From Gordius sp. MW1 (taxonomy: Eukaryota; Nematomorpha; Gordioida; Gordea; Gordiidae), in contig OZ038531.1 of NCBI GenBank assembly GCA_964036665.1, positions 13,516,168 to 13,580,167 on the forward strand: a DNA stretch of 64,000 bases, read 5' to 3'. Numbering within the stretch: position 1 is the first letter of the stretch; the number at the start of each line of letters is the position of its first letter. Positions 1 to 64,000 of this stretch are shown in pieces. The notes under the pieces are model-generated. The model was not told where the DNA came from and searched no databases. It was given only the letters and a program-made list of their open reading frames with translations. The position numbers were made by a program, and so were the translations under genes.

Positions 1-94
1 TCTTTTGTCAAAATGATAGTTCTCGCAGCTTAAAACCTCTTTTCGGAAGTCGATCGAGGATAATAGGATTCTCAAATTGGCTTACTTTTATATA

Positions 95-165
95 TTTTTT
101 CATGCTCTTTCACATAGAATCGAAAAAAATAAATATTTTTGCCTCAAAATTTTTCACATATTTTT
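95..165. other. A/T-tract core of the monomer, possible curved DNA
   Basis: In monomer 1 there are A or T runs at 95-100, 123-129, 136-140, 146-154 (AAAATTTTT) and 161-165. The last four are centred about 12 bp apart, close to the helical repeat, which in general favours intrinsic curvature. G+C here is about 24%, against 40% in the first 60 bases of the unit. The tract recurs in essentially every monomer with run-length variation (TTTTTCATG, TTTTTTCATG, TTTTTTTATG). Curvature is an inference from tract spacing. Confidence 0.6.
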
Positions 166-264
166 CTTTGAACCGTATTCATCCGATGAAAGTTGTCGTT
201 TTCAGACGTGGTTTCTATGATCCCAAGTAAAAACTTATCAGAATCTAAAAACTATTACTTTGAA

Positions 265-272
265 ATCATGAT
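265..272. repeat. ATCATGAT palindrome, site of a recurrent 3-bp deletion
   Basis: The 8-bp palindrome sits in TTTGAAATCATGATCGCAT in nearly every monomer. Fourteen monomers by my count have lost CAT, leaving GAAATGATCG (for example those starting at 20587, 21584, 22268, 23618, 23960, 30738, 32447, 34155, 35522, 44375 and 46075). The variant tracks particular HOR lineages and is useful as a marker. Confidence 0.8.
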
Positions 273-306
273 CGCATAGAGCAGTTTTCAAAAATTAAGC
301 ACTAAC

Positions 307-333
307 GTTGCGATACAACAAACTAATCGCAAC
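307..333. repeat. Perfect 8-bp inverted repeat (dyad) in the monomer
   Basis: GTTGCGAT at 307-314 and ATCGCAAC at 326-333 are exact reverse complements separated by 11 nt, so the segment can form a hairpin or cruciform or present a dyad protein site. It recurs in most full-length 345-bp monomers. It is lost or weakened by several distinct changes: the 10-bp deletion (CACATAC junction), the 4-bp deletion (CACGTTTAC junction), GTTGCTAT in monomers at 346, 691 and 1381, and right-arm changes such as TATTTGCAAC (49843, 53267 and 54976 boundaries), AATCGTAAC and AATAGC (27315). Any function is inference. Confidence 0.85.
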
Positions 334-2760
334 AATAAAACGTTGTCTTTTGTCAAAATGATAGTTCTCGCAGCTTAAAACCTCTTTTCGGAAGTCAATC
401 GAGGATAATATGATTCTCAAATTGGCTTACTTTTATATATTTTTTTATGCTCTTTTACATAGAATCGAAAAAAATAAATATTTTTGCCTCAAAATATTTC
501 ACATATTTTTCATTGAACCGTATTCATCCGATGAAAGTTGTCGTTTTCAGACGTGGTTTCTATGATCCCAAGTAAAAACTTATCAGAATCTAAAAACTAT
601 TACTTTGAAATCATGATCGCATGGAGCAGTTTTCAAAAATTAAGCACTCACGTTGCTATACAACAAACTAATCGCAACAATAAAACGTTGTCTTTTGTCA
701 AAATGATAGTTCTCGCAGCTTAAAACCTCTTTTCGGAAGTCGATCGAGGATAATAGGATTCTCAAATTGGCTTACTTTTATATATTTTTTCATGCTCTTT
801 CACATAGAATCGAAAAAAATAAATATTTTTGCCTCAAAATTTTTCACATATTTTTCTTTGAACCGTATTCATCCGATGAAAGTTGTAGTTTTCAGACGTG
901 GTTTCTATGATCCCAAGTAAAAACTTATCAGAATCTAAAAACTATTACTTTGAAATCATGATCGCATGGAGCAGTTTTTAAAAATTAAGCACTCACGTTG
1001 CTATACAACAAACTAATCGCAACAATAAAACGTTGTCGTTTGTCAAAATGATAGTTCTCGCAGCTTAAAACCTCTTTTCGGAAGTCGATCGAGGATAATA
1101 GGATTCTCAAATTGGCTTACTTTTATATATTTTTTCATGCTCTTTCACATAGAATCGAAAAAAATAAATATTTTTGCCTCAAAATTTTTCACATATTTTT
1201 CTTTGAACCGTATTCATCCGATGAAAGTTGTCGTTTTCAGACGTGGTTTCTATGATCCCAAGTAAAAACTTATCAGAATCTAAAAACTATTACTTTGAAA
1301 TCATGATCGCATAGAGCAGTTTTCAAAAATTAAGCACTAACGTTGCGATACAACAAACTAATCGCAACAATAAAACGTTGTCTTTTGTCAAAATGATAGT
1401 TCTCGCAGCTTAAAACCTCTTTTCGGAAGTCAATCGAGGATAATAGGATTCTCAAATTGGCTTACTTTTATATATTTTTTTATGCTCTTTTACATAGAAT
1501 CGAAAAAATAAATATTTTTGCCTCAAAATATTTCACATATTTTTCATTGAACCGTATTCATCCGATGAAAGTTGTTGTTTTCAGACGTGGTTTCTATGAT
1601 CCCAAGTAAAAACTTATCAGAATCTAAAAACTATTACTTTGAAATCATGATCGCATGGAGCAGTTTTCAAAAATTAAGCACTCACGTTGCTATACAACAA
1701 ACTAATCGCAACAATAAAACGTTGTCTTTTGTCAAAATGATAGTTCTCGCAGCTTAAAACCTCTTTTCGGAAGTCGATCGAGGATAATAGGATCCTCAAA
1801 TTGGCTTACTTTTATATATTTTTTCATGCTCTTTCACATAGAATCGAAAAAAATAAATATTTTTGCCTCAAAATTTTTCACATATTTTTCTTTGAACCGT
1901 ATTCATCCGATGAAAGTTGTCGTTTTCAGGCGTGGTTTCTATGATCCCAAGTAAAAACTTATCAGAATCTAAAAACTATTACTTTGAAATCATGATCGCA
2001 TAGAGCAGTTTTCAAAAATTAAGCACTCACGTTGCGATACAACAAACTAATCGCAACAATAAAACGTTGTCTTTTGTCAAAATGATAGTTCTCGCAGCTT
2101 AAAACCTCTTTTCGAAAGTCGATCGAGGATAATAGGATTCTCAAATTGGCTTACTTTTATATATTTTTTCATGGTCTTTTACATAAAATCGAAAAAAATA
2201 AATATTTTTGCCTCAAAATTTTTCACATATTTTTCTTTGAACCGTATTCATCCGATGAAAGTTGTCGTTTTCAGACGTGGTTTCTATGATCCCAAGTAAA
2301 AATTTATCAGAATCTAAAAACTATTACTTTGAAATCATGATCGCATAGAGCAGTTTTTAAAAATTAAGCACTAACGTTGCGATACAACAAACTAATCGCA
2401 ACAATAAAACGTTGTCTTTTGTCAAAATGATATTTCTCGCAGCTTAAAACCTCTTTTCGGAAGTCAATCGAGGATAATAGGATTCTCAAATTGGCATACT
2501 TTTATATATTTTTTCATGCTCTTTCACATAAAATCGAAAAAAATAAAGATTTTTGCCTCAAAATTTTTCACATATTTTACTTTGAACCGTATTCATTCCG
2601 ATGAAAGTTGTCGTTTTCAGACGTGGTTTCTATGATCCCAAGTAAAAACTTATCAGAATCTAAAAACTATTACTTTTAAATCATGATCGCATAGAGCAGT
2701 TTTCAAAAATTTAGCACTCACGTTGCGATACAACAAACTAATCGCAACAATAAAACGTTG

Positions 2761-5520
2761 TCTTTTGTCAAAATGATATTTCTCGCAGCTTAAAACCTCT
2801 TTTCGGAAGTCAATCGAGGATAATAGGATTCTCAAATTGGCTTACTTTTATATATTTTTTCATGCTCTTTCACATAAAATCGAAAAAAATAAATATTTTT
2901 GCCTCAAAATTTTTCACATATTTTTCTTTGAACCGTATTCATCCGATGAAAGTTGTCGTTTTCAGACGTGGTTTCTAAGATCCCAAGTAAAAATTTATCA
3001 GAATCTAAAAACTATTACTTTGAAATCATGATCGCATAGAGCAGTTTTCAAAAATTAAGCACTGACGTTGCGATACAACAAACTAATCGCAACAATAAAA
3101 CGTTGTCTTTTGTCAAAATGATAGTTCTCGCAGCTTAATACCTCTTTTCGGAAGTCAATCGAGGATAATAGGATTCTCAAATTGGCTTACTTTTATATAT
3201 TTTTTCATGCTCTTTCACATAGAATTGAAAAAAATAAATATTTTTACCTCAAAATTTTTCACATATTTTTCTTTGAGCCGTATTCATCCGATGAAAGTTG
3301 TCGTTTTCAGACGTGGTTTCTATGATCCCAAGTAAAAATTTATCAGAATTTAAAACTATTACTTTGAAATCATGATCGCATAGATCAGTTTTCAAAAATT
3401 AAGCACTCACGTTGCGATACAACAAACTAATCGCAACAATAAAACGTTGCCTTTTGTCAAAATGATAGTTCTCGCAGCTTAAAACCTCTTTTCGGAAGTC
3501 AATCGAGGATAATAGGATTCTCAAATTGGCTTACTTTTATATATTTTTTCATGCTCTTTCACATAGAATCGAAAAAAATAAATATTTTTGCCTAAAAATT
3601 TTTCACATATTTTTCTTTGAACCGTATTCATCCGATGAAAGTTGTCGTTTTCAGACGTGGTTTCTAAGATCCCAAGTAAAAATTTATCAGAATCTAAAAA
3701 CTATTACTTTGAAATCATGATCGCATAGAGCAGTTTTCAAAAATTAAGCACTGACGTTGCGATACAACAAACTAATCGCAACAATAAAACGTTGTCTTTT
3801 GTCAAAATGATAGTTCTCGCAGCTTAAAACCTCTTTTCGGAAGTCAATCGAGGATAATAGGATTCTCAAATTGGCTTACTTTTATATATTTTTTCATGCT
3901 CTTTCACATAGAATTGAAAAAAATAAATATTTTTACCTCAAAATTTTTCACATATTTTTCTTTGAACCGTATTCATCCGATGAAAGTTGTCGTTTTCAGA
4001 CGTGGTTTCTATGATCCCAAGTAAAAATTTATCAGAATTTAAAAACTATTACTTTGAAATCATGATCGCATAGATCAGTTTTCAAAAACTAAGCACTCAC
4101 GTTGCGATACAACAAACTAATCGCAACAATAAAACGTTGTCTTTTGTCAAAATGATAGTTGTCGCAGCTTAAAACCTCTTTTCGGAAGTCAATCGAGGAT
4201 AATAGGATTCTCAAATTGGCTTACTTTTATATATTTTTTTATGCTCTTTCACATAAAATCGAAAAAAATAAATATTTTTGCCTCAAAATTTTTCACATAT
4301 TTTTCTTTGAACCGTGTTCATCCGATGAAAGTTGTCGTTTTCAGACGTGGTTTCAATGATCCCAAGTAAAAACTTATCAGAATCTAAAAACTATTACTTT
4401 GAAATTATGATCGCATAGAGCAGTTTTCAAAAATTAAGCACTCACGTTGCGATACAACAAACTAATCGCAACAATAAAACGTTGTCTTTTGTCAAAATGA
4501 TAGTTCTCGCAGCTTAATACCTCTTTTCGGAAGTCAATCGAGGGTAATAGGATTCTCAAATTGGCTTACTTTTATACTTTTTTTTAATGCTCTTTCACAT
4601 AGAATCGAAAAAAATAAATATTTTTGCCTCAAAATTTTTCACATATTTTTCTTTGAACCGTATTCATCCGATGAAAGTTGTCGTTTTCAGACGTGGTTTC
4701 TAAGACCCCAAGTAAAAATTTATCAGAATCTAAAAACTATTACTTTGAAATCATGATCGCATAGAGCAGTTTTCAAAAATTAAGCACTCACGTTGCGATA
4801 CAACAAACTAATCGCAACAATAAAACATTGTCTTTTGTCAAAATGATAGTTCTCGCAGCTTAAAACCTCTTTTCGGAAGTCATTCGAGGATAATAGGATT
4901 CTCAAATTGGCTTACTTTTATATATTTTTTCATGCTCTTTCACATAGAATCGAAAAAAATAAATATTTTTACCTCAAAATTTTTCACATATTTTTCTTTG
5001 AACCGTATTCATCCGATGAAAGTTGTCGTTTTCAGACGTGGTTTCTATGATCCCAAGAAAAAATTTATCAGAATCTAAAAACTATTACTTTGAAATCATG
5101 ATCGCATAGAGCAGTTTTCATAAATTAAGCACTCACGTTGCGATACAACAAACTAATCGCAACAATAAAACGTTTTCTTTTGTCAAAATGATAGTTCTCG
5201 CAGCTTAAAACCTCTTTTCGGAAGTCAATCGAGGATAATAGGATTCTCAAATTGGCTTACTTTTATATATTTTTTCATGCTCTTTCACATAAAATCGAAA
5301 AAAATAAATATTTTTGCCTCAAAATTTTTCACATATTTTTCTTTGAACCGTGTTCATCCGATGAAAGTTGTCGTTTTCAGACGTGGTTTCAATGATCCCA
5401 AGTAAAAATTTATCAGAATCTAAAAACTATTACTTTGAAATCATGATCGCATAGAGCAGTTTTCAAAAATTAAGCACTCACGTTGCGATACAACAAACTA
5501 ATCGCAACAATAAAACGTTC
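2761..5520 (+). repeat. Mixed monomers with a 689-bp dimer pair (monomers 9-16)
   Basis: Starts are 2761, 3106, 3450, 3795, 4140, 4485, 4831 and 5176. Monomers at 2761 and 3450 share CTAAGATCC with CACTGACG. Those at 3106 and 3795 share AATTGAAAA with the ACCTC form, so 2761-3449 and 3450-4139 form a tandem dimer pair. GTCGCAG replaces CTCGCAG near 4161, and the unit at 4485 carries a longer T-run with an extra base near 4578. Nothing non-satellite is present. Confidence 0.8.
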
Positions 5521-8496
5521 TCTTTTGTCAAAATGATAGTTCTCGCAGCTTAAAACCTCTTTTCGGAAGTCGATCGAGGATAATAGGATTCTCAAATTGG
5601 CTTACTTTTATATATTTTTTCATGCTCTTTCACATAGAATCGAAAAAAATAAATATTTTTGCCTCAAAATTTTTCACATATTTTTCTTTGAACCGTATTC
5701 ATCCGATGAAAGTTGTCGTTTTCAGACGTGGTTTCTATGATCCCAAGTAAAAACTTATCAGAATCTAAAAACTATTACTTTGAAATCATGATCGCATAGA
5801 GCAGTTTTCAAAAATTAAGCACTAACGTTGCGATACAACAAACTAATCGCAACAATAAAACGTTGTCTTTTGTCAAAATGATAGTTCTCGCAGCTTAAAA
5901 CCTCTTTTCGGAAGTCAATCGAGGATAATATGATTCTCAAATTGGCTTACTTTTATATATTTTTTTATGCTCTTTTACATAGAATCGAAAAAAATAAATA
6001 TTTTTGCCTCAAAATATTTCACATATTTTTCATTGAACCGTATTCATCCGATGAAAGTTGTCGTTTTCAGACGTGGTTTCTATGATCCCAAGTAAAAACT
6101 TATCAGAATCTAAAAACTATTACTTTGAAATCATGATCGCATGGAGCAGTTTTCAAAAATTAAGCACTCACGTTGCTATACAACAAACTAATCGCAACAA
6201 TAAAACGTTGTCTTTTGTCAAAATGATAGTTCTCGCAGCTTAAAACCTCTTTTCGGAAGTCGATCGAGGATAATAGGATTCTCAAATTGGCTTACTTTTA
6301 TATATTTTTTCATGCTCTTTCACATAGAATCGAAAAAAATAAATATTTTTGCCTCAAAATTTTTCACATATTTTTCTTTGAACCGTATTCATCCGATGAA
6401 AGTTGTAGTTTTCAGACGTGGTTTCTATGATCCCAAGTAAAAACTTATCAGAATCTAAAAACTATTACTTTGAAATCATGATCGCATGGAGCAGTTTTTA
6501 AAAATTAAGCACTCACGTTGCTATACAACAAACTAATCGCAACAATAAAACGTTGTCGTTTGTCAAAATGATAGTTCTCGCGGCTTAAAACCTCTTTTCG
6601 GAAGTCGATCGAGGATAATAGGATTCTCAAATTGGCTTACTTTTATATATTTTTTCATGCTCTTTCACATAGAATCGAAAAAAATAAATATTTTTGCCTC
6701 AAAATTTTTCACATATTTTTCTTTGAACCGTATTCATCCGATGAAAGTTGTCGTTTTCAGACGTGGTTTCTATGATCCCAAGTAAAAACTTATCAGAATC
6801 TAAAAACTATTACTTTGAAATCATGATCGCATAGAGCAGTTTTCAAAAATTAAGCACTAACGTTGCGATACAACAAACTAATCGCAACAATAAAACGTTG
6901 TCTTTTGTCAAAATGATAGTTCTCGCAGCTTAAAACCTCTTTTCGGAAGTCAATCGAGGATAATAGGATTCTCAAATTGGCTTACTTTTATATATTTTTT
7001 TATGCTCTTTTACATAGAATCGAAAAAATAAATATTTTTGCCTCAAAATATTTCACATATTTTTCATTGAACCGTATTCATCCGATGAAAGTTGTTGTTT
7101 TCAGACGTGGTTTCTATGATCCCAAGTAAAAACTTATCAGAATCTAAAAACTATTACTTTGAAATCATGATCGCATGGAGCAGTTTTCAAAAATTAAGCA
7201 CTCACGTTGCTATACAACAAACTAATCGCAACAATAAAACGTTGTCTTTTGTCAAAATGATAGTTCTCGCAGCTTAAAACCTCTTTTCGGAAGTCGATCG
7301 AGGATAATAGGATCCTCAAATTGGCTTACTTTTATATATTTTTTCATGCTCTTTCACATAGAATCGAAAAAAATAAATATTTTTGCCTCAAAATTTTTCA
7401 CATATTTTTCTTTGAACCGTATTCATCCGATGAAAGTTGTCGTTTTCAGGCGTGGTTTCTATGATCCCAAGTAAAAACTTATCAGAATCTAAAAACTATT
7501 ACTTTGAAATCATGATCGCATAGAGCAGTTTTCAAAAATTAAGCACTCACGTTGCGATACAACAAACTAATCGCAACAATAAAACGTTGTCTTTTGTCAA
7601 AATGATAGTTCTCGCAGCTTAAAACCTCTTTTCGAAAGTCGATCGAGGATAATAGGATTCTCAAATTGGCTTACTTTTATATATTTTTTCATGGTCTTTT
7701 ACATAAAATCGAAAAAAATAAATATTTTTGCCTCAAAATTTTTCACATATTTTTCTTTGAACCGTATTCATCCGATGAAAGTTGTCGTTTTCAGACGTGG
7801 TTTCTATGATCCCAAGTAAAAATTTATCAGAATCTAAAAACTATTACTTTGAAATCATGATCGCATAGAGCAGTTTTTAAAAATTAAGCACTAACGTTGC
7901 GATACAACAAACTAATCGCAACAATAAAACGTTGTCTTTTGTCAAAATGATATTTCTCGCAGCTTAAAACCTCTTTTCGGAAGTCAATCGAGGATAATAG
8001 GATTCTCAAATTGGCATACTTTTATATATTTTTTCATGCTCTTTCACATAAAATCGAAAAAAATAAAGATTTTTGCCTCAAAATTTTTCACATATTTTAC
8101 TTTGAACCGTATTCATTCCGATGAAAGTTGTCGTTTTCAGACGTGGTTTCTATGATCCCAAGTAAAAACTTATCAGAATCTAAAAACTATTACTTTTAAA
8201 TCATGATCGCATAGAGCAGTTTTCAAAAATTTAGCACTCACGTTGCGATACAACAAACTAATCGCAACAATAAAACGTTGTCTTTTGTCAAAATGATATT
8301 TCTCGCAGCTTAAAACCTCTTTTCGGAAGTCAATCGAGGATAATAGGATTCTCAAATTGGCTTACTTTTATATATTTTTTCATGCTCTTTCACATAAAAT
8401 CGAAAAAAATAAATATTTTTGCCTCAAAATTTTTCACATATTTTTCTTTGAACCGTATTCATCCGATGAAAGTTGTCGTTTTCAGACGTGGTTTCT
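5521..8496 (+). repeat. Right copy of the 16-monomer-shift duplication
   Basis: Monomers start at 5521, 5866, 6211, 6556, 6901, 7245, 7590, 7935 and 8281, each exactly 5,520 bp after its partner. With one substitution seen in 2,976 bp this is the most recent exchange in the window, or possibly an assembly duplication. Past 8496 the copy switches to CTATGATCC, AAACTTATC and ACGATTACTTTT, which belong to a different monomer type. Confidence 0.93.
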
Positions 8497-10471
8497 ATGA
8501 TCCCAAGTAAAAACTTATCAGAATCTAAAAACGATTACTTTTAAATCATGATCGCATAGAGCAGTTTTCAAAAATTAAGCACTCACGTTGCGATACAACA
8601 AACTAATCGCAACAATAAAACGTTGTCTTTTGTCAAAATGATAGTTCTCGCAGTTTAAAACCTCTTTTCGGAAGTCGATCGAGGATAATAGGATTCTCAA
8701 ATTGGCTTACTTTTATATATTTTTTCATGGTCTTTCACATAAAATCGAAAAAAATAAATATTTTTACCTCAAAATTTTTCACATATTTTTCTTTGAACCG
8801 TATTCATCCGATGAAAGTTGTCGTTTTCAGACGTGGTTTCTATGATCCCAAGTAAAAATTTATCAGAATTTAAAAACTATTACTTTGAAATCATGATCGC
8901 ATAGAGCAGTTTTCAAAAATTAAGCACATACAACAAACTAATCGCAACAATAAAACATTGTCTTTTGTCAAAATGATAGTTCTCGCAGCTTAAAACCTCT
9001 TTTCGGAAGTCAATCGAGGATAATAGGATTCTCAAGTTGGCTTATTTTTATATATTTTTTCATGCTCTTTTACATAGAATTGAAAAAAATAAATATTTTT
9101 ACCTCAAAATTTTTTACATATTTTTCTTTGAACCGTATTCATCCGATGAAAGTTGTCGTTTTCAGACGTGGTTTCTATGATCCCAAGTAAAAATTTATCA
9201 GAATCTAAAAACTATTACTTTGAAATCATGATCGCATAGAGCAGTTTTCAAAAATTAAGCACATACAACAAACTAATCGTAACAATAAAACATTGTCTTT
9301 TGTCAAAATGATAGTTCTCGCAGCTTAAAACCTCTTTTTGGAAGTCAATCGAGGATAATAGGATTCTCAAATTGGCTTACTTTTATATATTTTTTCATGC
9401 TCTTTCACATAAAATCGAAATAAATAAATATTTTTGCCTCAAAATTTTTCACATATTTTTCTTTGAACCGTATTCATCCGATGAAAGTTGTCGTTTTCAG
9501 ACGTGGTTTCTATGATCCCAAGTAAAAACTTATCAGAATCTAAAAACTATTACTTTGAAATCATGATCGCATAGAGCAGTTTTCAAAAATTAAGCACTCA
9601 CGTTGCGATACAACAAACTAATCGCAACAATAAAACGTTGTCTTTTGTCAAAATGATAGTTCTCGCAGCTTAAAACCTCTTTTCGGAAGTCAATCGAGGA
9701 TAATAGGATTCTCAAATTGGCTTACTTTTATATATTTTTTCATGCTCTTTCACATAGAATCGAAAAAAATAAATAATTTTGCCTCAAAATATTTCACATA
9801 TTTTTCATTGAACCGTATTCATCCGATGAAAGTTGTCGTTTTCAGACGTGGTTTCTATGATCCCAAGTAAAAACTTATCAGAATCTAAAAACTATTACTT
9901 TGAAATCATGATCGCATAGAGCAGTTTTCAAAAATTAAGCACTCACGTTGCGATACAACAAACTAATCGCAACAATAAAACGTTGTCTTTTGTCAAAATG
10001 ATAGTTCTCGCAGTTTAAAACCTCTTTTCGGAAGTCGATCGAGGATAATAGGATTCTCAAATTGGCTTACTTTTATATATTTTTTCATGGTCTTTCACAT
10101 AAAATGGAAAAAAATAAATATTTTTACCTCAAAATTTTTCACATATTTTTCTTTGAACCGTATTCATCCGATGAAAGTTGTCGTTTTCAGACGTGGTTTC
10201 TATGATCCCAAGTAAAAATTTATCAGAATTTAAAAACTATTACTTTGAAATCATGATCGCATAGAGCAGTTTTCAAAAATTAAGCACATACAACAAACTA
10301 ATCGCAACAATAAAACATTGTCTTTTGTCAAAATGATAGTTCTCGCAGCTTAAAACCTCTTTTCGGAAGTCAATCGAGGATAATAGGATTCTCAAATTGG
10401 CTTACTTTTATATATTTTTTCATGCTCTTTCACATAGAATTGAAAAAAATAAATATTTTTACCTCAAAATT
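8497..10471 (+). repeat. Mixed block, monomers 25-31, including ATGGTC/TCGATCG types
   Basis: Starts inside are 8626, 8961, 9296, 9641, 9986 and 10321. Units at 8626 and 9986 are near-identical: CAGTTTAAAAC, TCGATCGA, CATGGTC and the 10-bp dyad deletion. The units after them (8961, 10321) share AATTGAAAA and ACCTC. The unit at 9641 has the AAATATTTCAC and CATTGAACC pair otherwise seen at 346, 1381 and their 5,520-bp partners, and at 61779. The block closely resembles 61779-63134 at the other end of the window. Confidence 0.8.
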
Positions 10472-13226
10472 TTTCACATATTTTTCTTTGAACCGTATTC
10501 ATCCGATGAAAGTTGTCGTTTTCAGACGTGGTTTCTATGATCCCAAGTAAAAATTTATCAGAATCTAAAAACTATTACTTTGAAATCATGATCGCATAGA
10601 GCAGTTTTCAAAAATTAAGCACTAACGTTGCGATACAACAAACTAATCGCAACAATAAAACGTTGTCTTTTGTCAAAATTATAGTTCTCGCAGCTTAAAA
10701 CCTCTTTTCGGAAGTCAATCGAGGATAATAGGATTCTCAAATTGGCTTACTTTTATATATTTTTTCATGCTCTTTCACATAGAATCGAAAAAAATAAATA
10801 TTTTTGCCTCAAAATTTTGCACATATTTTTCTTTGAACCGTATTCATCCGATGAAAGTTGTCGTTTTAAGACGTGGTTTCTAAGATCCCAAGTAAAAATT
10901 TATCAGAATCTAAAAACTATTACTTTGAAATCATGATCGCATAGAGCAGTTTTCAAAAATTAAGCACTCACGTTGCGATACAACAAACTAATCGCAACAA
11001 TAAAACGTTGTCTTTTGTCAAAATGATAGTCGCAGCTTAAAACCTCTTTTCGGAAGTCAATCGAGGATAATAGGATTCTCAAATTGGCTTACTTTTATAT
11101 ATTTTTTTATGCTCTTTCACATAAAATCGAAAAAAATAAATATTTTTGCCTCAAAATTTTTCACATATTTTTCTTTGAACCGTATTCATCCGATGAAAGT
11201 TGTCGTTTTCAGACGTGGTTTCTATGATCCCAAGTAAAAATTTATCAGAATCTAAAAACTATTACTTTGAAATCATGATCGCATAGAGCAGTTTTTAAAA
11301 ATTAAGCACTAACGTTGCGATACAACAAACTAATCGCAACAATAAAACGTTGTCTTTTGTCAAAATGATATTTTTCGCAGCTTAAAACCTCTTTTCGGAA
11401 GTCAATCGAGGATAATAGGATTCTCAAATTGGCTTACTTTTATATATTTTTTCATGCTCTTTCACATAAAATCAAAAAAAATAAATATTTTAGCCTCAAA
11501 ATTTTTCACATATTTTTCTTTGAACCGTATTCATCCGATGAAAGTTGTCGTTTTCAGACGTGGTTTCTATGATCCCAAGTAAAAACTTATCAGAATCTAA
11601 AAACTATTACTTTTAAATCATGATCGCATAGAGCAGTTTTCAAAAATTAAGCACTCACGTTGCGATACAACAAACTAATCGCAACAATAAAACGTTGTCT
11701 TTTGTCAAAATGATAGTTCTCGCAGCTTAAAACCTCTTTTCGGAAGTCAATCGAGGATAATAGGATTCTCAAATTGGCTTACTTTTATATATTTTTTCAT
11801 GCTCTTTCACATAGAATCGAAAAAAATAAATATTTTTGCCTCAAAATTTTGCACATATTTTTCTTTGAACCGTATTCATCCGATGAAAGTTGTCGTTTTC
11901 AGACGTGGTTTCTATGATCCCAAGTAAAAATTTATCAGAATCTAAAAACTATTACTTTGAAATCATGATCGCATAGAGCAGTTTTCAAAAATTAAGCACT
12001 AACGTTGCGATACAACAAACTAATCGCAACAATAAAACGTTGTCTTTTGTCAAAATTATAGTTCTCGCAGCTTAAAACCTCTTTTCGGAAGTCAATCGAG
12101 GATAATAGGATTCTCAAATTGGCTTACTTTTATATATTTTTTCATGCTCTTTCACATAGAATCGAAAAAAATAAATATTTTTGCCTCAAAATTTTGCACA
12201 TATTTTTCTTTGAACCGTATTCATCCGATGAAAGTTGTCGTTTTAAGACGTGGTTTCTAAGATCCCAAGTAAAAATTTATCAGAATCTAAAAACTATTAC
12301 TTTGAAATCATGATCGCATAGAGCAGTTTTCAAAAATTAAGCACTCACGTTGCGATACAACAAACTAATCGCAACAATAAAACGTTGTCTTTTGTCAAAA
12401 TGATAGTCGCAGCTTAAAACCTCTTTTCGGAAGTCAATCGAGGATAATAGGATTCTCAAATTGGCTTACTTTTATATATTTTTTTATGCTCTTTCACATA
12501 AAATCGAAAAAAATAAATATTTTTGCCTCAAAATTTTTCACATATTTTTCTTTGAACCGTATTCATCCGATGAAAGTTGTCGTTTTCAGACGTGGTTTCT
12601 ATGATCCCAAGTAAAAATTTATCAGAATCTAAAAACTATTACTTTGAAATCATGATCGCATAGAGCAGTTTTTAAAAATTAAGCACTAACGTTGCGATAC
12701 AACAAACTAATCGCAACAATAAAACGTTGTCTTTTGTCAAAATGATATTTTTCGCAGCTTAAAACCTCTTTTCGGAAGTCAATCGAGGATAATAGGATTC
12801 TCAAATTGGCTTACTTTTATATATTTTTTCATGCTCTTTCACATAAAATCAAAAAAAATAAATATTTTAGCCTCAAAATTTTTCACATATTTTTCTTTGA
12901 ACCGTATTCATCCGATGAAAGTTGTCGTTTTCAGACGTGGTTTCTATGATCCCAAGTAAAAACTTATCAGAATCTAAAAACTATTACTTTTAAATCATGA
13001 TCGCATAGAGCAGTTTTCAAAAATTAAGCACTCACGTTGCGATACAACAAACTAATCGCAACAATAAAACGTTGTCTTTTGTCAAAATGATAGTTCTCGC
13101 AGCTTAAAACCTCTTTTCGGAAGTCAATCGAGGATAATAGGATTCTCAAATTGGCTTACTTTTATATATTTTTTCATGCTCTTTCACATAGAATCGAAAA
13201 AAATAAATATTTTTGCCTCAAAATTT
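10472..13226 (+). repeat. 4-monomer HOR, 1,377-bp unit, two tandem copies
   Basis: Monomer starts 10666, 11011, 11353, 11698 repeat at 12043, 12388, 12730, 13075, a shift of 1,377 bp (4 x 345 minus 3). Shared marks are CAAAATTATAG, TTTTGCACAT, TTTTAAGACG with CTAAGATCC, the 3-bp deletion GATAGTCGCAG, GATATTTTTCGC and TATTTTAGCC. Similarity begins at about 10472 in the first copy and is lost at about 11850/13227, where TTTTGCAC is replaced by TTTTTCAC. Confidence 0.88.
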
Positions 13227-21400: not shown

Positions 21401-21408
21401 ATATTTTT
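21401..21408 (+). repeat. 25-bp deletion junction at an 8-bp direct repeat (twin at 24774-24781)
   Basis: A normal monomer has ATATTTTT, 17 bp, then a second ATATTTTT. Here only one copy remains and the 25 bp are gone, giving a 315-bp monomer (it also has the 4-bp dyad deletion). The same junction at 24774-24781 is the HOR copy. This is the expected product of slippage or repeat-mediated deletion. Confidence 0.88.
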
Positions 21409-22943: not shown

Positions 22944-22951
22944 ATAAAAAT
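22944..22951 (+). other. 17-bp deletion at a monomer junction (twin near 26317)
   Basis: The usual AAAACGTTG-TCTTTTGTC-AAAATGATAG boundary is collapsed to AATAAAAATGATAG, removing the monomer-start motif. The flanking A-runs provide 3-4 bp of microhomology. The inherited twin lies in the second 3,373-bp copy. Confidence 0.85.
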
Positions 22952-49700: not shown

Positions 49701-50183
49701 AGACGTGGTTTCTATGATCCCAAGTAAAAATTTATCAGAATTTAAAAACTATTACTTTGAAATCATGATCGCATAGAGCAGTTTTCAAAAATTAAGCACT
49801 CACGTTGCGATACAACAAACTATTTGCAACAATAAAACGTTGTCTTTTGTCAAAATGATAGTCGCAGCTTAAAACCTCTTTTCGGAAGTCAATCAAGGAT
49901 AATAGGATTCTCAAATTGGCTTACTTTTATATATTTTTTCATGCTCTTTCACATAGAATCGAAAAAAATAAATATTTTTGCCTCAAAATTTTTCACATAT
50001 TTTTCTTTGAACCGTATTCATCCGATGAAAGTTGTCGTTTTCAGACGTGGTTTCTATGATCCCAAGTAAAAACTTTTCAGAATCTAAAAACTATTACTTT
50101 GAAATCATGATCGCATAGAGCAGTTTTCAAAAATTAAGCACTCACGTTGCGATACAACAAACTAATCGCAACAATAATCGTTG
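46760..50183 (+). repeat. 10-monomer HOR, 3,424-bp unit, copy 1
   Basis: Starts are 46760, 47094, 47439, 47784, 48129, 48463, 48808, 49153, 49498 and 49843. Internally the first eight form two related 4-monomer runs (46760 and 48129): AAAACTCTTT/TATACTC/GTAGTTTTC, CTCGAAAT, a TATTTTAGCC type, and TTTTAAGACG/CTAAGATCC. Two more units follow (CACATATAATCG with TATTTGCAAC; GATAGTCGCAG with AACTTTTCAG and AATAATCG). Copy 2 follows directly; I see about eight differences. Confidence 0.92.
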
Positions 50184-53100: not shown

Positions 53101-53607
53101 CATCCGATGAAAGTTGTCGTTTTCAGACGTGGTTTCTATGATCCCAAGTAAAAATTTATCAGAATTTAAAAACTATTACTTTGAAATCATGATCGCATAG
53201 AGCAGTTTTCAAAAATTAAGCACTCACGTTGCGATACAACAAACTATTTGCAACAATAAAACGTTGTCTTTTGTCAAAATGATAGTCGCAGCTTAAAACC
53301 TCTTTTCGGAAGTCAATCAAGGATAATAGGATTCTCAAATTGGCTTACTTTTATATATTTTTTCATGCTCTTTCACATAGAATCGAAAAAAATAAATATT
53401 TTTGCCTCAAAATTTTTCACATATTTTTCTTTGAACCGTATTCATCCGATGAAAGTTGTCGTTTTCAGACGTGGTTTCTATGATCCCAAGTAAAAACTTT
53501 TCAGAATCTAAAAACTATTACTTTGAAATCATGATCGCATAGAGCAGTTTTCAAAAATTAAGCACTCACGTTGCGATACAACAAACTAATCGCAACAATA
53601 ATCGTTG
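50184..53607 (+). repeat. 10-monomer HOR, 3,424-bp unit, copy 2
   Basis: Starts are 50184, 50518, 50863, 51208, 51553, 51887, 52232, 52577, 52922 and 53267, each 3,424 bp after copy 1. Differences seen are CTTTTCGG against CTTTCCGG, CAAATATT against CAATTATT, AATTTTTCAC against AATTTATCAC, GATCGAATAG against GATCGCATAG, AATCTAAAAAC against AATCAAAAAAC, TTGGCTT against TTGCCTT, and TTAAAACC against TTAACACC. The last pair of monomers recurs in part at 54976. Confidence 0.92.
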
Positions 53608-56600
53608 TCTTTTGTCAAAATGATAGTTCTCGCAGCTTAAAACCTCTTTTCGGAAGTCAATCGAGGATAATAGGATTCTCAAATTGGCTTACTTTTATAT
53701 ATTTTTTCATGCTCTTTCACATAGAATTGAAAAAAATAAATATTTTTACCTCAAAATTTTTCACATATTTTTCTTTGAACCGTATTCATCCGTGAAATTG
53801 TCGTTTTCAGACGTGGTTTCTATGATCCCAAGTAAAAATTTATCAGAATTTAAAAACTATTACTTTGAAATCATGATCGCATAGAGCAGTTTTCAAAAAT
53901 TAAGCACTCACGTTGCGATACAACAAACTAATCGCAACAATAAAACGTTGTCTTTTGTCAAAATGATAGTTCTCGCAGTTTAAAACCTCTTTTCGGAAGT
54001 CGATCGAGGATAATAGGATTCTCAAATTGGCTTACTTTTATATATTTTTTCATGGTCTTTCACATAAAATCGAAAAAAATAAATATTTTTACCTCAAAAT
54101 TTTTCACATATTTTTATTTGAACCGTATTCATCCGATGAAAGTTGTCGTTTTCAGACGTGGTTTCTATGATCCCAAGTAAAAATTTATCAGAATTTAAAA
54201 ACTATTACTTTGAAATCATGATCGCATAGGGCAGTTTTCAAAAATTAAGCACATACAACAAACTAATCGCAACAATAAAACATTGTCTTTTGTCAAAATG
54301 ATAGTTCTCGCAGCTTAAAACCTCTTTTCGGAAATCAATCGAGGATAATAGGATTCTCAAATTGGCTTACTTTTATATATTTTTCATGCTCTTTCACATA
54401 GATTTGAAAAAAATAAATATTTTTACCTCAAAATTTTTCACATATTTTTCTTTGAACCGTATTCATCCGATGAAAGTTGTCGTTTTTAGACGTGGTTTCT
54501 ATGATCCCAAGTAAAAATTTATCAGAATCTAAAAACTATTACTTTGAAATCATGATCGCATAGAGCAGTTTTCAAAAAATTAAGCACTCACGTTGCGACA
54601 CAACAAACTAATCGCAACAATAAAACGTTGTCTTTTGTCAAAATGATAGTTCTCGCAGCTTAAAACCTCTTTTCGGAAGTCAATCGAGGATAATAGGATT
54701 CTCAAATTGGCTTACTTTTATATATTTTTTCATGCTCTTTCACATAGAATCGAAAAAAATAAATATTTTTGCCTCAAAAGTTTTCACATATTTTTCTTTG
54801 AACCGTATTCATCCGATGAAAGTTGTCGTTTTAAGACGTGGTTTCTAAGATCCCAAGTAAAAATTTATCAGAATCTAAAAACTATTACTTTGAAATCATG
54901 ATCGCATAGAGCAGTTTTCAATAATTAAGCACTCACGTTGCGATACAACAAACTATTTGCAACAATAAAACGTTGTCTTTTGTCAAAATGATAGTCGCAG
55001 CTTAAAACCTCTTTTCGGAAGTCAATCAAGGATAATAGGATTCTCAAATTGGCTTACTTTTATATATTTTTTCATGCTCTTTCACATAGAATCGAAAAAA
55101 ATAAATATTTTTGCCTCAAAATTTTTCACATATTTTTCTTTGAACCGTATTCATCCGATGAAAGTTGTCGTTTTCAGACGTGGTTTCTATGATCCCAAGT
55201 AAAAACTTTTCAGAATCTAAAAACTATTACTTTGAAATCATGATCGCATAGAGCAGTTTTCAAAAATTAAGCACTCACGTTGCGATACAACAAACTAATC
55301 GCAACAATAATCGTTGTCTTTTGTCAAAATGATAGTTCTCGCAGCTTAAAACCTCTTTTCGGAAGTCAATCGAGGATAATAGGATTCTCAAATTGGCTTA
55401 CTTTTATATATTTTTTCATGCTCTTTCACATAGAATCGAAAAAAAAAAAATTTTACCTCAAAATTTTTCACATATTTTTCTTTGAACCGTATTCATCCGA
55501 TGAAAGTTGTCGTTTTCAGACGTGGTTTCTATGATCCCAAGTAAAAACTTATCAGAATCTAAAAACTATTACTTTGAAATCATGATCGCATAAAGCAGTT
55601 TTCAAAAATTAAGCACTCACGTTGCGATACAACAAACTAATCGCAACAATAAAACGTTATCTTTTGTCAAAATGATAGTTCTCGCAGCTTAAAACCTCTT
55701 TTCGGAAGTCAATCGAGGATAATAGGATTCTCAAATTGGCTTACTTTTATATATTTTTTCATGCTCTTTCACATAGAATTGAAAAAAATAAATATTTTTA
55801 CCTCAAAATTTTTCACATATTTTTCTTTGAACCGTATTCATCCGATGAAAGTTGTCGTTTTCAGACGTGGTTTCTATGATCCCAAGTAAAAATTTATCAG
55901 AATCTAAAAACTATTACTTTGAAATCATGATCGCATAGAGCAGTTTTCAAAAATTAAGCACTAACGTTGCGATACAACAAACTAATCGCAACAATAAAAC
56001 GTTGTCTTTTGTCAAAATGATAGTTCTCGCAGCTTAAAACCTCTTTTCGGAAGTCAATCGAGGATAATAGGATTCTCAAATTGGCTTACTTTTATATATT
56101 TTTTCATGCTCTTTCACATAGAATCGAAAAAAATAAATATTTTTGCCTCAAAATTTTTCACATATTTTTCTTTGAACCGTATTCATCCGATGAAAGTTGT
56201 CGTTTTCAGACGTGGTTTCTATGATCCCAAGTAAAAATTTATCAGAATCTAAAAACTATTACTTTGAAATCATGATCGCATAGAGCAGTTTTCAAAAATT
56301 AAGCACTCACGTTTACAACAAACTAATCGCAACAATAATCGTTGTCTTTTGTCAAAATGATAGTTCTCGCAGCTTAAAACCTCTTTTCGGAAGTCAATCG
56401 AGGATAATAGGATTCTCAAATTGGCTTACTTTTATATATTTTTTCATGCTCTTTCACATAGAATCGAAAAAATAAAAATTTTTACCTCAAAATTTTTCAC
56501 ATATTTTTCTTTGAACCGTATTCATCCGATGAAAGTTGTCGTTTTCAGACGTGGTATCTATGATCCCAAGTAAAAATTTATCAGAATTTAAACAACTATT

Positions 56601-58390: not shown

Positions 58391-60084
58391 TCTTTTGTCA
58401 AACGCAGCTTAAAACTCTTTTCGGAAGTCAATCGAGCATAATAGGATTTTCAAATTGGCTTACTTTTATATATTTTTTTATGCTCTTTCACATAGAATCG
58501 AAAAAAACAAATATTTTTACCTCAAAATTTTTCACATATTTTTCTTTGAACCGTATTCATCCGATGAAAGTTGTCGTTTTCAGACGTGGTTTCTATGATC
58601 CCAAGTAAAAATTTATCAGAATTTAAAAACTATTAATTTGAAATCATGATCGCATAGAGGAGTTTTCAAAAATTAAGCACATACAACAAACTAATCGCAA
58701 CAATAAAACGTTATCTTTTGTCAAAATGATAGTTCTCGCAGCTTAAAACCTCTTTTCGGAAGTCAATCGAGAATAATAGGATTCTCAAATTGGCTTACTT
58801 TTATATATTTTTTCATGCTCTTTCACATAGAATCGAAAAAAATAAATATTTTTACCTAAAAAATTTTTCACATATTTTTCTTTGAACCTTATTCATCCGA
58901 TGAAAGTTGTCGTTTTCAGACGTGGTTTCTATGATCCCAAGTAAAAATTTATCAGAATTTAAAAACTATTACTTTGAAATCATGATCGCATAGAGCAGTT
59001 TTCAAAAATTAAGCACATACAACAAACTAATCGCAACAATAAAACATTGTCTTTTGTCAAAATGATAGTTCTCGCAGCTTAAAACCTCTTTTCGGAAGTC
59101 AATCGAGGATAATAGGATTCTCAAGTTGGCTTATTTTTATATATTTTTTCATGCTCTTTCACATAGAATTGAAAAAAATAAATATTTTTACCTCAAAATT
59201 TTTCACATATTTTTCTTTGAACCGTATTCATCCGATGAAAGTTGTCGTTTTCAGACGTGGTTTCTATGATCCCAAGTAAAAATTTATCAGAATCTAAAAA
59301 CTATTACTTTGAAATCATGATCGCATAGAGCAGTTTTCAAAAATTAAGCACTAACGTTGCGATACAACAAACTAATCGCAACAATAAAACGTTGTCTTTT
59401 GTCAAAATGATAGTTCTCGCAGCTTAAAACCTCTTTTCGGAAGTCAATCGAGGATAATAGGATTCTCAAATTGGCTTACTTTTATATATTTTTTCATGCT
59501 CTTTCACATAAAATCGAAAAAAATAAATATTTTTGCCTCAAAATTTTTCACATATTTTTCTTTGAACCGTATTCATCCGATGAAAGTTGTCGTTTTCAGA
59601 CGTGGTTTCTATGATCCCAAGTAAAAACTTATCAGAATCTAAAAACTATTACTTTGAAATCATGATCGCATAGAGCAGTTTTCAAAAATTAAGCACTCAC
59701 GTTGCGATACAACAAACTAATCGCAACAATAAAACTTTGTCTTTTGTCAAAATGATAGTTCTCGCAGCTTAAAACCTCTTTTCGGAAGTCAATCGAGGAT
59801 AATAGGATTCTCAAATTGGCTTACTTTTATATATTTTTTCATGCTCTTTCACATAGAATCGAAAAAAATAAATATTTTTGCCTCAAAATTTTTCACATAT
59901 TTTTCTTTGAACCGTATTCATCCGATGAAAGTTGTCGTTTTCAGACGTGGTTTCTATGATCCCAAGTAAAAATTTATCAGAATCTAAAAACTATTACTTT
60001 GAAATCATGATCGCATAGAGCAGTTTTCAAAAATTAAGCACTCACGTTGCGATACAACAAACTAATCGTAACAATAAAACGTTG
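58391..60084 (+). repeat. 5-monomer HOR, 1,694-bp unit, copy 1
   Basis: Starts are 58391, 58714, 59050, 59395 and 59740. The first unit is 323 bp: an 11-bp deletion (GTCAAACGCAGC near 58397-58408), a 1-bp deletion (AAAACTC) and the 10-bp dyad deletion. The second has ACCTAAAAAATTTT and AACCTTATTC. The third has CTCAAGTTGG with TTATTTTTA, as at 8961. The fourth and fifth are ordinary G-C-C-T-C type units. Confidence 0.9.
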
Positions 60085-61778
60085 TCTTTTGTCAAACGCA
60101 GCTTAAAACTCTTTTCGGAAGTCAATCGAGCATAATAGCATTTTCAAATTGGCTTACTTTTTTATATTTTTTTATGCTCTTTCACATAGAATCGAAAAAA
60201 ACAAATATTTTTACCTCAAAATTTTTCACATATTTTTCTTTGAACCGTATTCATCCGATGAAAGTTGTCGTTTTCAGACGTGGTTTCTATGATCCCAAGT
60301 AAAAATTTATCAGAATTTAAAAACTATTAATTTGAAATCATGATCGCATAGAGGAGTTTTCAAAAATTAAGCACATACAACAAACTAATCGCAACAATAA
60401 AACGTTATCTTTTGTCAAAATGATAGTTCTCGCAGCTTAAAACCTCTTTTCGGAAGTCAATCGAGAATAATAGGATTCTCAAATTGGCTTACTTTTATAT
60501 ATTTTTTCATGCTCTTTCACATAGAATCGAAAAAAATAAATATTTTTACCTAAAAAATTTTTCACATATTTTTCTTTGAACCTTATTCATCCGATGAAAG
60601 TTGTCGTTTTCAGACGTGGTTTCTATGATCCCAAGTAAAAATTTATCAGAATTTAAAAACTATTACTTTGAAATCATGATCGCATAGAGCAGTTTTCAAA
60701 AATTAAGCACATACAACAAACTAATCGCAACAATAAAACATTGTCTTTTGTCAAAATGATAGTTCTCGCAGCTTAAAACCTCTTTTCGGAAGTCAATCGA
60801 GGATAATAGGATTCTCAAGTTGGCTTATTTTTATATATTTTTTCATGCTCTTTCACATAGAATTGAAAAAAATAAATATTTTTACCTCAAAATTTTTCAC
60901 ATATTTTTCTTTGAACCGTATTCATCCGATGAAAGTTGTCGTTTTCAGACGTGGTTTCTATGATCCCAAGTAAAAATTTATCAGAATCTAAAAACTATTA
61001 CTTTGAAATCATGATCGCATAGAGCAGTTTTCAAAAATTAAGCACTAACGTTGCGATACAACAAACTAATCGCAACAATAAAACGTTGTCTTTTGTCAAA
61101 ATGATAGTTCTCGCAGCTTAAAACCTCTTTTCGGAAGTCAATCGAGGATAATAGGATTCTCAAATTGGCTTACTTTTATATATTTTTTCATGCTCTTTCA
61201 CATAAAATCGAAAAAAATAAATATTTTTGCCTCAAAATTTTTCACATATTTTTCTTTGAACCGTATTCATCCGATGAAAGTTGTCGTTTTCAGACGTGGT
61301 TTCTATGATCCCAAGTAAAAACTTATCAGAATCTAAAAACTATTACTTTGAAATCATGATCGCATAGAGCAGTTTTCAAAAATTAAGCACTCACGTTGCG
61401 ATACAACAAACTAATCGCAACAATAAAACGTTGTCTTTTGTCAAAATGATAGTTCTCGCAGCTTAAAACCTCTTTTCGGAAGTCAATCGAGGATAATAGG
61501 ATTCTCAAATTGGCTTACTTTTATATATTTTTTCATGCTCTTTCACATAGAATCGAAAAAAATAAATATTTTTGCCTCAAAATTTTTCACATATTTTTCT
61601 TTGAACCGTATTCATCCGATGAAAGTTGTCGTTTTCAGACGTGGTTTCTATGATCCCAAGTAAAAACTTATCAGAATCTAAAAACTATTACTTTGAAATC
61701 ATGATCGCATAGAGCAGTTTTCAAAAATTAAGCACTAACGTTGCGATACAACAAACTAATCGCAACAATAAAACGTTG
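60085..61778 (+). repeat. 5-monomer HOR, 1,694-bp unit, copy 2
   Basis: Starts are 60085, 60408, 60744, 61089 and 61434. All signatures of copy 1 are kept, including the 11-bp deletion. Differences seen are AATAGCATTTTC against AATAGGATTTTC, TTTTTTATATTT against TTTTATATATTT, AAAACGTTG against AAAACTTTG, and AAACTTATC with CACTAACG in the fifth unit. Confidence 0.9.
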
Positions 61779-64000
61779 TCTTTTGTAAAATGATAGTTCT
61801 CGCAGCTTAAAACCTCTTTTCGGAAGTCAATCGAGGATAATAGGATTCTCAAATTGGCTTACTCTTATATATTTTTTTATGCTCTTTCACATAGAATCGA
61901 AAAAAATAAATATTTTTGCATCAAAATATTTCACATATTTTTCATTGAACCGTATTCATCCGATGAAAGTTGTCGTTTTCAGACGTGGTTTCTATGATCC
62001 CAAGTAAAAACTTATCAGAATCTAAAAACTATTACTTTGAAATCATGATCGCATAGAGCAGTTTTCAAAAATTAAGCACTCACGTTGCGATACAACAAAC
62101 TAATCGCAACAATAAAACGTTGTCTTTTGTCAAAATGATAGTTCTCGCAGTTTAAAACCTCTTTTCGGAAGTCGATCGAGGATAATAGGATTCTCAAATT
62201 GGCTTACTTTTATATATTTTTTCATGGTCTTTCACATAAAATCGAAAAAAATAAATATTTTTACCTCAAAATTTTTCACATATTTTTCTTTGAACCGTAT
62301 TCATCCGATGAAAGTTGTCGTTTTCAGACGTGGTTTCTATGATCCCAAGTAAAAATTTATCATTTAAAAACTTTTACTTTGAAATCATGATCGCATAGAG
62401 CAGTTTTCAAAAATTAAGCACATACAACAAACTAATCGCAACAATAAAACATTGTCTTTTGTCAAAATGATAGTTCTCGCAGCTTAAAACCTCTTTTCGG
62501 AAGTCAATCGAGGATAATAGGATTCTCAAATTGGCTTACTTTTATATATTTTTTCATGCTCTTTCACATAGAATTGAAAAAAATAAATATTTTTACCTCA
62601 AAATTTTTCACATATTTTTCTTTGAACCGTATTCATCCGATGAAAGTTGTCGTTTTCAGACGTGGTTTCTATGATCCCAAGTAAAAATTTATCAGAATCT
62701 AAAAACTATTATTTTGAAATCATGATCGCATAGAGCAGTTTTCAAAAATTAAGCACATACAACAAACTAATCGCAACAATAAAACATTGTCTTTTGTCAA
62801 AATGATAGTTCTCGCAGTTTAAAACCTCTTTTCGGAAGTCGATCGAGGATAATAGGATTCTCAAATTGGCTTACTTTTATATATTTTTTCATGGTCTTTC
62901 ACATAAAATCGAAAAAAATAAATATTTTTGCCTCAAAATTTTGCACATATTTTTCTTTGAACCGTATTCATCCGATGAAAGTTGTCGTTTTAAGACGTGG
63001 TTTCTAAGATCCCAAGTAAAAATTTATCAGAATCTAAAAACTATTACTTTGAAATCATGATCGCATAGAGCAGTTTTCAAAAATTAAGCACTCACGTTGC
63101 GATACAACAAACTAATCGCAACAATAAAACGTTGTCTTTTGTCAAAATGATAGTCGCAGCTTAAAACCTCTTTTCGGAAGTCAATCGAGGATAATAGGAT
63201 TCTCAAATTGGCTTACTTTTATATATTTTTTTATGCTCTTTCACATAAAATCAAAAAAAATAAATATTTTTGCCTCAAAATTTTTCACATATTTTTCTTT
63301 GAACCGTATTCATCCGATGAAAGTTGTCGTTTTCAGACGTGGTTTCTATGATCCCAAGTAAAAATTTATCAGAATCTAAAAACTATTACTTTGAAATCAT
63401 GATCGCATAGAGCAGTTTTCAAAAATTAAGCACTCACGTTTACAACAAACTAATCGCAACAATAATCGTTGTCTTTTGTCAAAATGATAGTTCTCGCAGC
63501 TTAAAACCTCTTTTCGGAAGTCAATCGAGGATAATAGGATTCTCAAATTGGCTTACTTTTATATATTTTTTTATGCTCTTTCACATAGAATCAAAAAAAG
63601 AAATATTTTTACCTCAAAATTTTTCACATATTTTTCTTTGAACCGTATTCATCCGATGAAAGTTGTCGTTTTCAGACGTGGTATCTATGATCCCAAGTAA
63701 AAATTTATCAGAATTTAAAAACTATTACTTTGAAATCATGATCGTATAGAGCAGTTTTCAAAAATTAAGCACTCACGTTGCGATACAACAAACTAATCGC
63801 AACAATAAAACGTTGTCTTTTGTCAAAATGATAGTTCTCGCAGCTTAAAACCTCTTTTCGGAAGTCAATCGAGGATAATAGGATTCTCAAATTGGCTTAC
63901 TTTTATATATTTTTTCATGCTCTTTCACATAGAATCGAAAAAATAAATATTTTTACCTCAAAATTTTTCACATATTTTTCTTTGAACCGTATTCATCCGA
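61779..64000 (+). repeat. Right tail: left-flank-like monomers and right copy of the 5,766-bp-shift duplication
   Basis: Starts are 61779, 62123, 62455, 62790, 63135, 63472 and 63816 (partial). Units at 61779 and 62123 (AAATATTTCAC/CATTGAACC, then TTTAAAACC/TCGATCGA/ATGGTC with the 10-bp dyad deletion) match 9641 and 9986, some 52 kb to the left. From 62721 to 63984 the sequence repeats 56955-58218. ATCATTTAAAAAC near 62360 is a private small deletion. The array continues beyond 64000. Confidence 0.83.

What the first reader, a model, noticed from the sequence alone, without database searches (positions are those of the whole stretch)
1..64000. A 64-kb pure satellite array of an unrecognised ~345-bp family
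187 full monomers in one orientation with no inserted transposon, gene or inversion. The unit is about 32% G+C and 345 bp, roughly two nucleosome repeats. Uninterrupted, HOR-structured arrays are typical of active centromere cores or recently expanded heterochromatin. I do not recognise the sequence from any satellite I know.
Basis: partly seen in the sequence, partly recalled or inferred. Interest (0 to 1): 0.7.

Follow-up and report, generated by a model that had tools for sequence, protein, structure and literature searches.

The report
Hairworm centromere-zone 345-bp satellite array
This 64-kb stretch is pure tandem repeat from the large repeat zones found on the eight big chromosomes of what looks like a hairworm (phylum Nematomorpha), most likely part of its centromere regions, which matters because hairworms are the sister group of the roundworms, some of which have no localised centromere.

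Summary
The window is one uninterrupted, single-orientation array of 187 full ~345-bp units plus a partial one (30% G+C; units 97.4% identical to consensus, 95.4% to each other). 'HOR-structured' is only partly right: blocks of 4-10 units are duplicated locally, about two copies each, with no lasting higher-order period.

The mitochondrial contig has the coding palindromes and gene order published for gordioid hairworms, so the genome is very probably a nematomorph (211.8 Mb, 8 large contigs). The repeat ('A') has about 67,500 copies (about 23 Mb, 11%) and is on all eight large contigs. In 71 spaced samples, 13 positive, the hits on a contig were neighbours. A related ~351-bp family ('B', 66% identical) forms blocks inside the A zone on C1 and C3; a B-like variant lies inside it on C2; C8 and C4 have one listed match each. 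A CENP-A-like histone gene is present.

Best reading: A is the megabase (peri)centromeric satellite of a monocentric genome; whether A or B carries CENP-A is open. I found no published account in the open-access library searched. It is a new member of a known kind. The interest lies in the phylum: hairworms are sister to nematodes, classic holocentric animals.

The parts
1..64000 (+). Tandem array of satellite family A (~345 bp), 187 full units plus a 185-bp partial one; the family continues on both sides in the contig, and the array ends about 14.7 kb downstream, at C5:13,594,836
   Evidence: TRF, wrap-around alignment; neighbouring matches; downstream end in L010
1..345 (+). First unit, phase reference (starts TCTTTTGTCAAAATGATAG)
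307..333 (+). 8-bp perfect inverted repeat GTTGCGAT/ATCGCAAC around an 11-nt loop, shown here in the first unit; not intact in the family B unit read
   Evidence: whole-unit folding is no better than shuffles
20587..27340 (+). Ten-unit block duplicated in tandem (20587-23959 and from 23960 on; end approximate), 99.9% identical
46760..53610 (+). Ten-unit block duplicated in tandem (46760-50183 and from 50184 on; end approximate), 99.8% identical
1..8625 (+). Nine units at 1-3105 repeated from 5521 on (end approximate), 99.8% identical
58391..61780 (+). Five-unit block duplicated in tandem (58391-60084 and from 60085 on; end approximate), 99.65% identical
10321..13075 (+). Four-unit block duplicated in tandem (10321-11697 and from 11698 on; end approximate), 99.8% identical

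Best explanation
The window is a slice of the main (peri)centromeric satellite (family A) of a gordioid hairworm with eight large, apparently monocentric chromosomes. SHOWN: the array; its copy number; presence on all eight large contigs with sampled hits clustered; block duplications and strand switches; a related family B inside the A zone on C1 and C3; a CENP-A-like gene. INFERRED: these zones are the centromere regions. A forms megabase heterochromatin that packages the centromere and holds sister chromatids, either carrying CENP-A nucleosomes itself or flanking a CENP-A core on family B; of the two I lean slightly to A as flank. Arrays are renewed by unequal exchange and block duplication. 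Centromere identity would be epigenetic (CENP-A), since no CENP-B box was found.
For: Copy number: a 32-bp probe (up to 3 mismatches) matches 39,634 + 27,839 places, reversed control 0; x 345 bp = about 23.3 Mb, 11% of 211.8 Mb. Position: of 71 spaced samples (10 kb to 50 bp) on seven contigs, 13 were positive (12 A, 1 B): C1 2 of 15 (12.2, 14.1 Mb of 28.2), C2 2 of 10 (9.8, 11.5 of 26.6), C3 3 of 15 (12.9, 14.7 = B, 16.4 of 25.9), C4 1 of 10 (2.4 of 24.1), C6 3 of 10 (13.1, 14.6, 16.1 of 23.0), C7 2 of 9 (9.1, 10.5 of 21.1), C8 0 of 2 points either side of its zone; where a contig had several positives they were neighbours. BLAST matches lie at C5:13.50-14.76 and C8:12.94-16.13 Mb only, in the part of the list shown. 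Nested B blocks: C3 14.28-14.80 and C1 12.88-13.27 Mb. CENP-A-like gene: two exons at C5:23,667,995-23,668,294 (-) with a longer loop 1 and a Trp as in CENP-A; the four best PDB matches are H3/CENP-A chimaeras. Holocentric nematodes have scattered satellites, monocentric Trichinella none scattered (PMC7392213, passages). [quoted passage not shown]
Against: No chromatin or cytological data. CENP-A is present in holocentric C. elegans too, so the gene does not show monocentricity. In the PDB search plain H3 chains follow the chimaeras closely (E 4e-15) and a native CENP-A chain ranks below many H3 chains (2.1e-14), so the call as CENP-A rests on loop and Trp, not on score. The CENP-C C-terminal Pfam model found nothing, though an intron could split it. 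Sampling leaves gaps: C2 beyond 16.9 Mb and parts of the arms of C4, C6 and C7 were not read, and C5 and C8 rest on a search that scores only the best candidates. One B probe match lies at C3:11.54 Mb, 1.4 Mb before the first positive C3 sample. Chromosome bias is uneven: C1 against C5 is 91.5-92.0% (within: 95.1-95.4%), but two C3 units are 94.0-94.3% identical to C5, as near as the two C5 stretches are to each other (94.1%). The taxon is inferred from mtDNA, not from a label.
Confidence: 0.8

Rival explanations
1. The A array in the window is itself active centromere core: CENP-A nucleosomes sit on A, and B is merely another local variant.
For: A is much commoner than B (67,473 against at least 3,936 probe matches) and is on all eight large contigs; the window holds young block duplications, as in active arrays; on C4-C8 a B block is not shown.
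Against: On C1 and C3 a distinct family B forms blocks inside the A zone, with a B-like variant inside it on C2, the layout expected of a core within a flanking satellite.
Confidence: 0.35
2. The zones are heterochromatin blocks without centromere function; the chromosomes are holocentric, as in some nematodes, and the satellite is simply confined to one low-recombination region.
For: A CENP-A gene alone does not tell monocentric from holocentric; CENP-C_C was not found; no chromatin data.
Against: A zone on every large contig, interior on seven and near one end on C4, with sampled hits clustered; holocentric nematodes show scattered satellites instead (PMC7392213, passages).
Confidence: 0.12
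3. Assembly artefact: a collapsed or mis-joined repeat scaffold with no true chromosomal position.
For: Long satellites are prone to mis-assembly; blocks duplicated at 99.8-99.9% could be assembly duplications.
Against: The family is on eight contigs with strand switches, C1 units differ from C5 units, and the array ends in non-satellite sequence downstream (L010).
Confidence: 0.04

Closest known systems
PMsat of Peromyscus mice (PMC6733818, passages)
   Different: A rodent satellite; sequences were not compared here, so only unit length and layout are shared; PMsat also lies at other heterochromatin in some species
Other centromeric satellites of monocentric animals (human alpha satellite, mouse minor satellite; recalled)
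   Same: Long AT-rich tandem arrays on every chromosome, block duplications
   Different: Unit length and sequence; no CENP-B box here; no stable HOR; CENP-A binding untested
Scattered satellites of holocentric nematodes (passage in PMC7392213, citing Subirana & Messeguer 2013, not read)
   Same: Sister phylum, satellite-rich
   Different: Here the satellite lies in a zone on each large contig instead of being scattered
Family B (~351 bp, this genome, L050)
   Same: Related by descent: 248 of 374 aligned columns (66%) identical, score 104.5 against at most 25 in 30 shuffles
   Different: Far fewer copies (at least 3,936), found inside the A zones of C1 and C3

Membership tests
Satellite DNA (long tandem array) | Head-to-tail units in long arrays, many copies | tested here: met
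Centromeric/pericentromeric satellite | On every chromosome, in one zone | tested here: met
   On all eight large contigs; sampled hits are neighbours on the five contigs with two or more, one hit on C4, BLAST zones on C5 and C8. Sampling is incomplete on several arms; contigs C9-C11 not examined
Centromeric/pericentromeric satellite | Bound by CENP-A / co-located with the primary constriction | not testable with these tools
   No ChIP, CUT&RUN or FISH data
Centromeric/pericentromeric satellite | Host encodes a CENP-A | tested here: met
   C5:23,667,995-23,668,294 (-); partial gene model of two exons, splice joined by eye; score alone does not separate it from H3
CENP-B-box satellites | 17-bp CENP-B box in the unit | tested here: not met
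   0 matches to the core motif and 0 with up to 3 mismatches in the window (motif recalled)
HOR-organised satellite | Many successive copies of one multi-unit period | tested here: not met
   Blocks of 4-10 units in about 2 copies; lag 10 nevertheless significant
Gordioid hairworm genome (host) | Coding palindromes in mt genes and the Gordioida mt gene order | tested here: met
   Perfect inverted repeats with arms to 108 nt in nad1 and others; order cox1-cox2-atp6-cox3-nad3-nad4L-nad4-nad5-(nad2)-nad6-cytb-(rrnL)-(nad1), brackets = other strand, as in PMC10380579 and PMC6649704 (passages); nad3, nad4L and which of nad4/nad5/nad2 by eye; nad6 just under its Pfam cut-off; rrnS and atp8 not located

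The most novel reading that the evidence does not exclude
Hairworms, the sister phylum of nematodes, have monocentric chromosomes with a two-layer satellite centromere: a megabase pericentromere of family A enclosing a few-hundred-kilobase core of the related family B (shown as blocks on C1 and C3, hinted on C2, C8 and C4). This would place the origin of nematode holocentricity after the nematode-hairworm split.
Probability: 0.4. Interest if true: 0.62.

Novelty: new member of a known kind. Interest (0 to 1): 0.45.

Why it matters
As a satellite it is ordinary. As, to my knowledge, a first look at centromere-zone DNA in Nematomorpha it gives a concrete, testable handle on an open question: whether the localised or the diffuse centromere is ancestral for nematodes and hairworms. 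The nested second family also offers a natural system for asking how a centromere satellite is replaced from within.

Tried and rejected
Rfam families in window 1-6000: none at E up to 1. Stable folded RNA or DNA of one unit: no better than shuffles. CENP-B box: absent. Internal dimer of ~172 bp: not significant. Coding potential: longest stop-to-stop stretches 97-100 aa in the plus frames and 59-62 aa in the minus frames, taken as no gene. A conserved 40-bp 'box' shared by A and B: the best window, 90% identical, is not significant (p 0.12 and 0.06), and that alignment had dropped inserted bases; the probe on it matched 53,160 places against 67,473 for the A probe, so no sign of further families sharing it (its end overlaps the recurrent deletion near 300, so this is no clean test); rejected. 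First guesses of an insect, copepod or bryozoan host: dropped when the mt palindromes and gene order were seen. The first B probe was built from the gap-stripped alignment and matched nothing exactly; searches used letters as read. C2 as a true B block: the listed C2 matches are 3 mismatches from that probe and recur near multiples of 343 bp, not 351, so I call it a B-like variant and lowered the novel-case odds from my draft. A scan of viral contigs: 0. CENP-C_C: 0. Greater homogeneity of B than of A: not claimed, as the listing is best-first. A first, cruder unit alignment (mean pairwise 88%) was replaced by that.

Full report
WHAT IS THERE. The window is G000:C5:13,516,168-13,580,167 of a 211.8-Mb genome in 12 contigs. 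TRF gives one array over all 64,000 bases, period 345, 187.5 copies. A wrap-around alignment finds 187 whole units and a 185-bp partial one, whole units 315-348 bp long; identity to consensus 97.4% over 183 near-full units. An anchor search finds none on the minus strand. Pairwise identity is 95.4%. G+C is 30.1%. The most variable part is a recurrent deletion of about 10 bp near positions 300-312 (38-50 of 183 units). Units 10 apart are more alike than in any of 2,000 order shuffles, but the duplicated blocks (4-10 units, mostly 4-16 units apart) come in about two copies, with 106 of 187 units in such duplications. So 'HOR-structured' should read 'patchy recent block duplications'.

ITS SURROUNDINGS. 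From 16 to 26 kb upstream the same family runs on the other strand (L009); downstream it ends at C5:13,594,836 in other sequence (L010). A 32-bp probe with up to 3 mismatches has 67,473 matches in the genome, reversed control 0, about 23 Mb or 11%. I sampled seven contigs at spaced points: 71 samples, 13 positive, 12 for A and one for a related family (C1 2/15, C2 2/10, C3 3/15, C4 1/10, C6 3/10, C7 2/9; C8 0/2, both points chosen outside its BLAST zone). On the five contigs with two or more positives these were neighbours. C2 beyond 16.9 Mb and parts of C4, C6 and C7 were not read. C5 (13.50-14.76 Mb) and C8 (12.94-16.13 Mb) come from BLAST hits, which score only the best candidates and list only part. 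The pattern listings, which seem to run in contig order with forward matches first, agree: the first exact forward match lies at C1:11.25 and C2:8.49 Mb for one probe and at C2:8.47 Mb for the other. Orientation changes along the zones of C1, C2, C3, C5, C6 and C7.

CHROMOSOME BIAS AND A SECOND FAMILY. Units of C5 and C1 are 95.1-95.4% alike within a stretch, 94.1% between two stretches of one contig, and 91.5-92.0% between C1 and C5. Against a simple rule, two C3 units are 94.0-94.3% identical to C5, and three C2 units are farther off (84-89%). One C3 sample (L050, 14.65 Mb) holds a different unit, family B, of ~351 bp, 66% identical to A over 374 aligned columns. B lies at C3:14.28-14.80 Mb and C1:12.88-13.27 Mb, inside the A zones. 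C2:10.07-10.10 Mb matches with 3 mismatches and a period near 343 bp, a B-like variant inside the C2 zone. C8:14.02 and C4:2.48 Mb (about 70 kb from the only positive A sample there) are one listed match each. One match lies at C3:11.54, before the first positive C3 sample. B has 3,936 probe matches (2,895 with another probe). Only about the first 100 places are listed, so B on C5-C7 is untested. On C1 B switches strand between 12.93 and 13.02 Mb.

WHOSE GENOME. C12 (14,798 bp) is mitochondrial. It carries many perfect inverted repeats inside genes (arms to 108 nt), and its order is cox1-cox2-atp6-cox3-nad3-nad4L-nad4-nad5-(nad2)-nad6-cytb-(rrnL)-(nad1), brackets marking the other strand. Pfam supports the ten frames tested, nad6 just under its cut-off; nad4, nad5 and nad2 share one model and were told apart by eye and place, nad3 and nad4L by eye; rrnS and atp8 were not located. 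Coding palindromes are the published mark of nematomorph mtDNA (PMC6649704, abstract and passages), where a gastrotrich is named as a lesser case; this order, with nad2 inverted, nad6-cytb kept and rrnL before nad1, is that of Gordionus, Parachordodes and Gordius (PMC10380579, passages). TTAGGG-type repeats cap the start of C8. I infer a gordioid hairworm, about 0.93 sure; the species is not known to me. [quoted passage not shown]

CENTROMERE MACHINERY. An H3 query finds two 99%-identical H3 genes, a 96%-identical interrupted copy (C8:26.46 Mb, intron or broken), an H3 pseudogene (C5:17.05 Mb) and a 54%-identical exon at C5:23.668 Mb. The last reads, over two exons joined by eye, with loop 1 three residues longer than in H3 by my count and a Trp where H3 has Phe (that this marks CENP-A is recalled). 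The four best PDB matches are H3/CENP-A chimaeras (E 1.5e-17 to 3e-16), but plain H3 chains follow (4e-15) ahead of a native CENP-A chain (2.1e-14). A CENP-A gene is very probable. CENP-C_C was not found, and the array has no CENP-B box.

HOW IT MOST LIKELY WORKS. Shown: array, abundance, zonal distribution in the samples, nested family on C1 and C3, CENP-A-like gene. Inferred: each zone is the centromere region; A builds its heterochromatin; CENP-A sits on B, on A, or on both. The nested layout makes me favour A as the flank, at about 0.45 against 0.35 for A as core. The layout resembles regional centromeres of other monocentric animals, for instance the 344-346-bp PMsat at Peromyscus centromeres (PMC6733818, passages); membership as 'CENP-A-bound satellite' is untested.

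NOVELTY. In the library searched, 'nematomorph' with 'satellite DNA' gave two papers, judged from the listing to be on other topics; three of 'holocentric, nematomorph, monocentric, centromere' gave 207 papers, none of the 15 listed with the word nematomorph; '345 bp' with satellite DNA and centromere gave four papers on other organisms (one looked into); searches on nematomorph genomes and karyotypes (listings) showed none on their satellites. Subscription papers, preprints, Dfam and Repbase were not searchable. It is a new member of a known kind; the value is phylogenetic. A review treats evidence for holocentricity outside C. elegans and its class as scarce or controversial (PMC7392213, passages), and the sister phylum bears on when it arose.

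Noticed in passing
G000:C12 (L011, L012): Mitochondrial genome packed with perfect coding palindromes (arms to 108 nt), plus a short-period repeat seen in the translated frames just upstream of cox1, at about 3,700-3,970.
   Followed up: partly
G000 contig sizes: C1-C7 run in falling size (28.2 to 21.1 Mb), then C8 is the largest (37.4 Mb) and C9 1.37 Mb, as if C8 (and perhaps C9) were named sex chromosomes; C9 was not examined.
   Followed up: no
G000:C3:14.28-14.80, C1:12.88-13.27 Mb; also C2:10.07-10.10, C8:14.02, C4:2.48 Mb: Second, related ~351-bp satellite (family B) inside the A zones of C1 and C3; a ~343-bp B-like variant on C2; one listed match each on C8 and C4. On C1 it switches strand between 12.93 and 13.02 Mb.
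   Followed up: partly
G000:C2:12.98-13.21 and 15.17-15.28 Mb: Two tandem clusters of histone genes with ~5.2-kb and ~6.3-kb units, matching the Histone model in two forms; the H3 query listed no match in these clusters.
   Followed up: no
G000:C5:17,052,480-17,052,870 (L088): Histone H3 pseudogene with in-frame stops.
   Followed up: no
L014 (right end of C5): The last 601 bases of C5, all that was viewed, are a degenerate TTAAAG/GTTAAA-type short repeat instead of TTAGGG.
   Followed up: no
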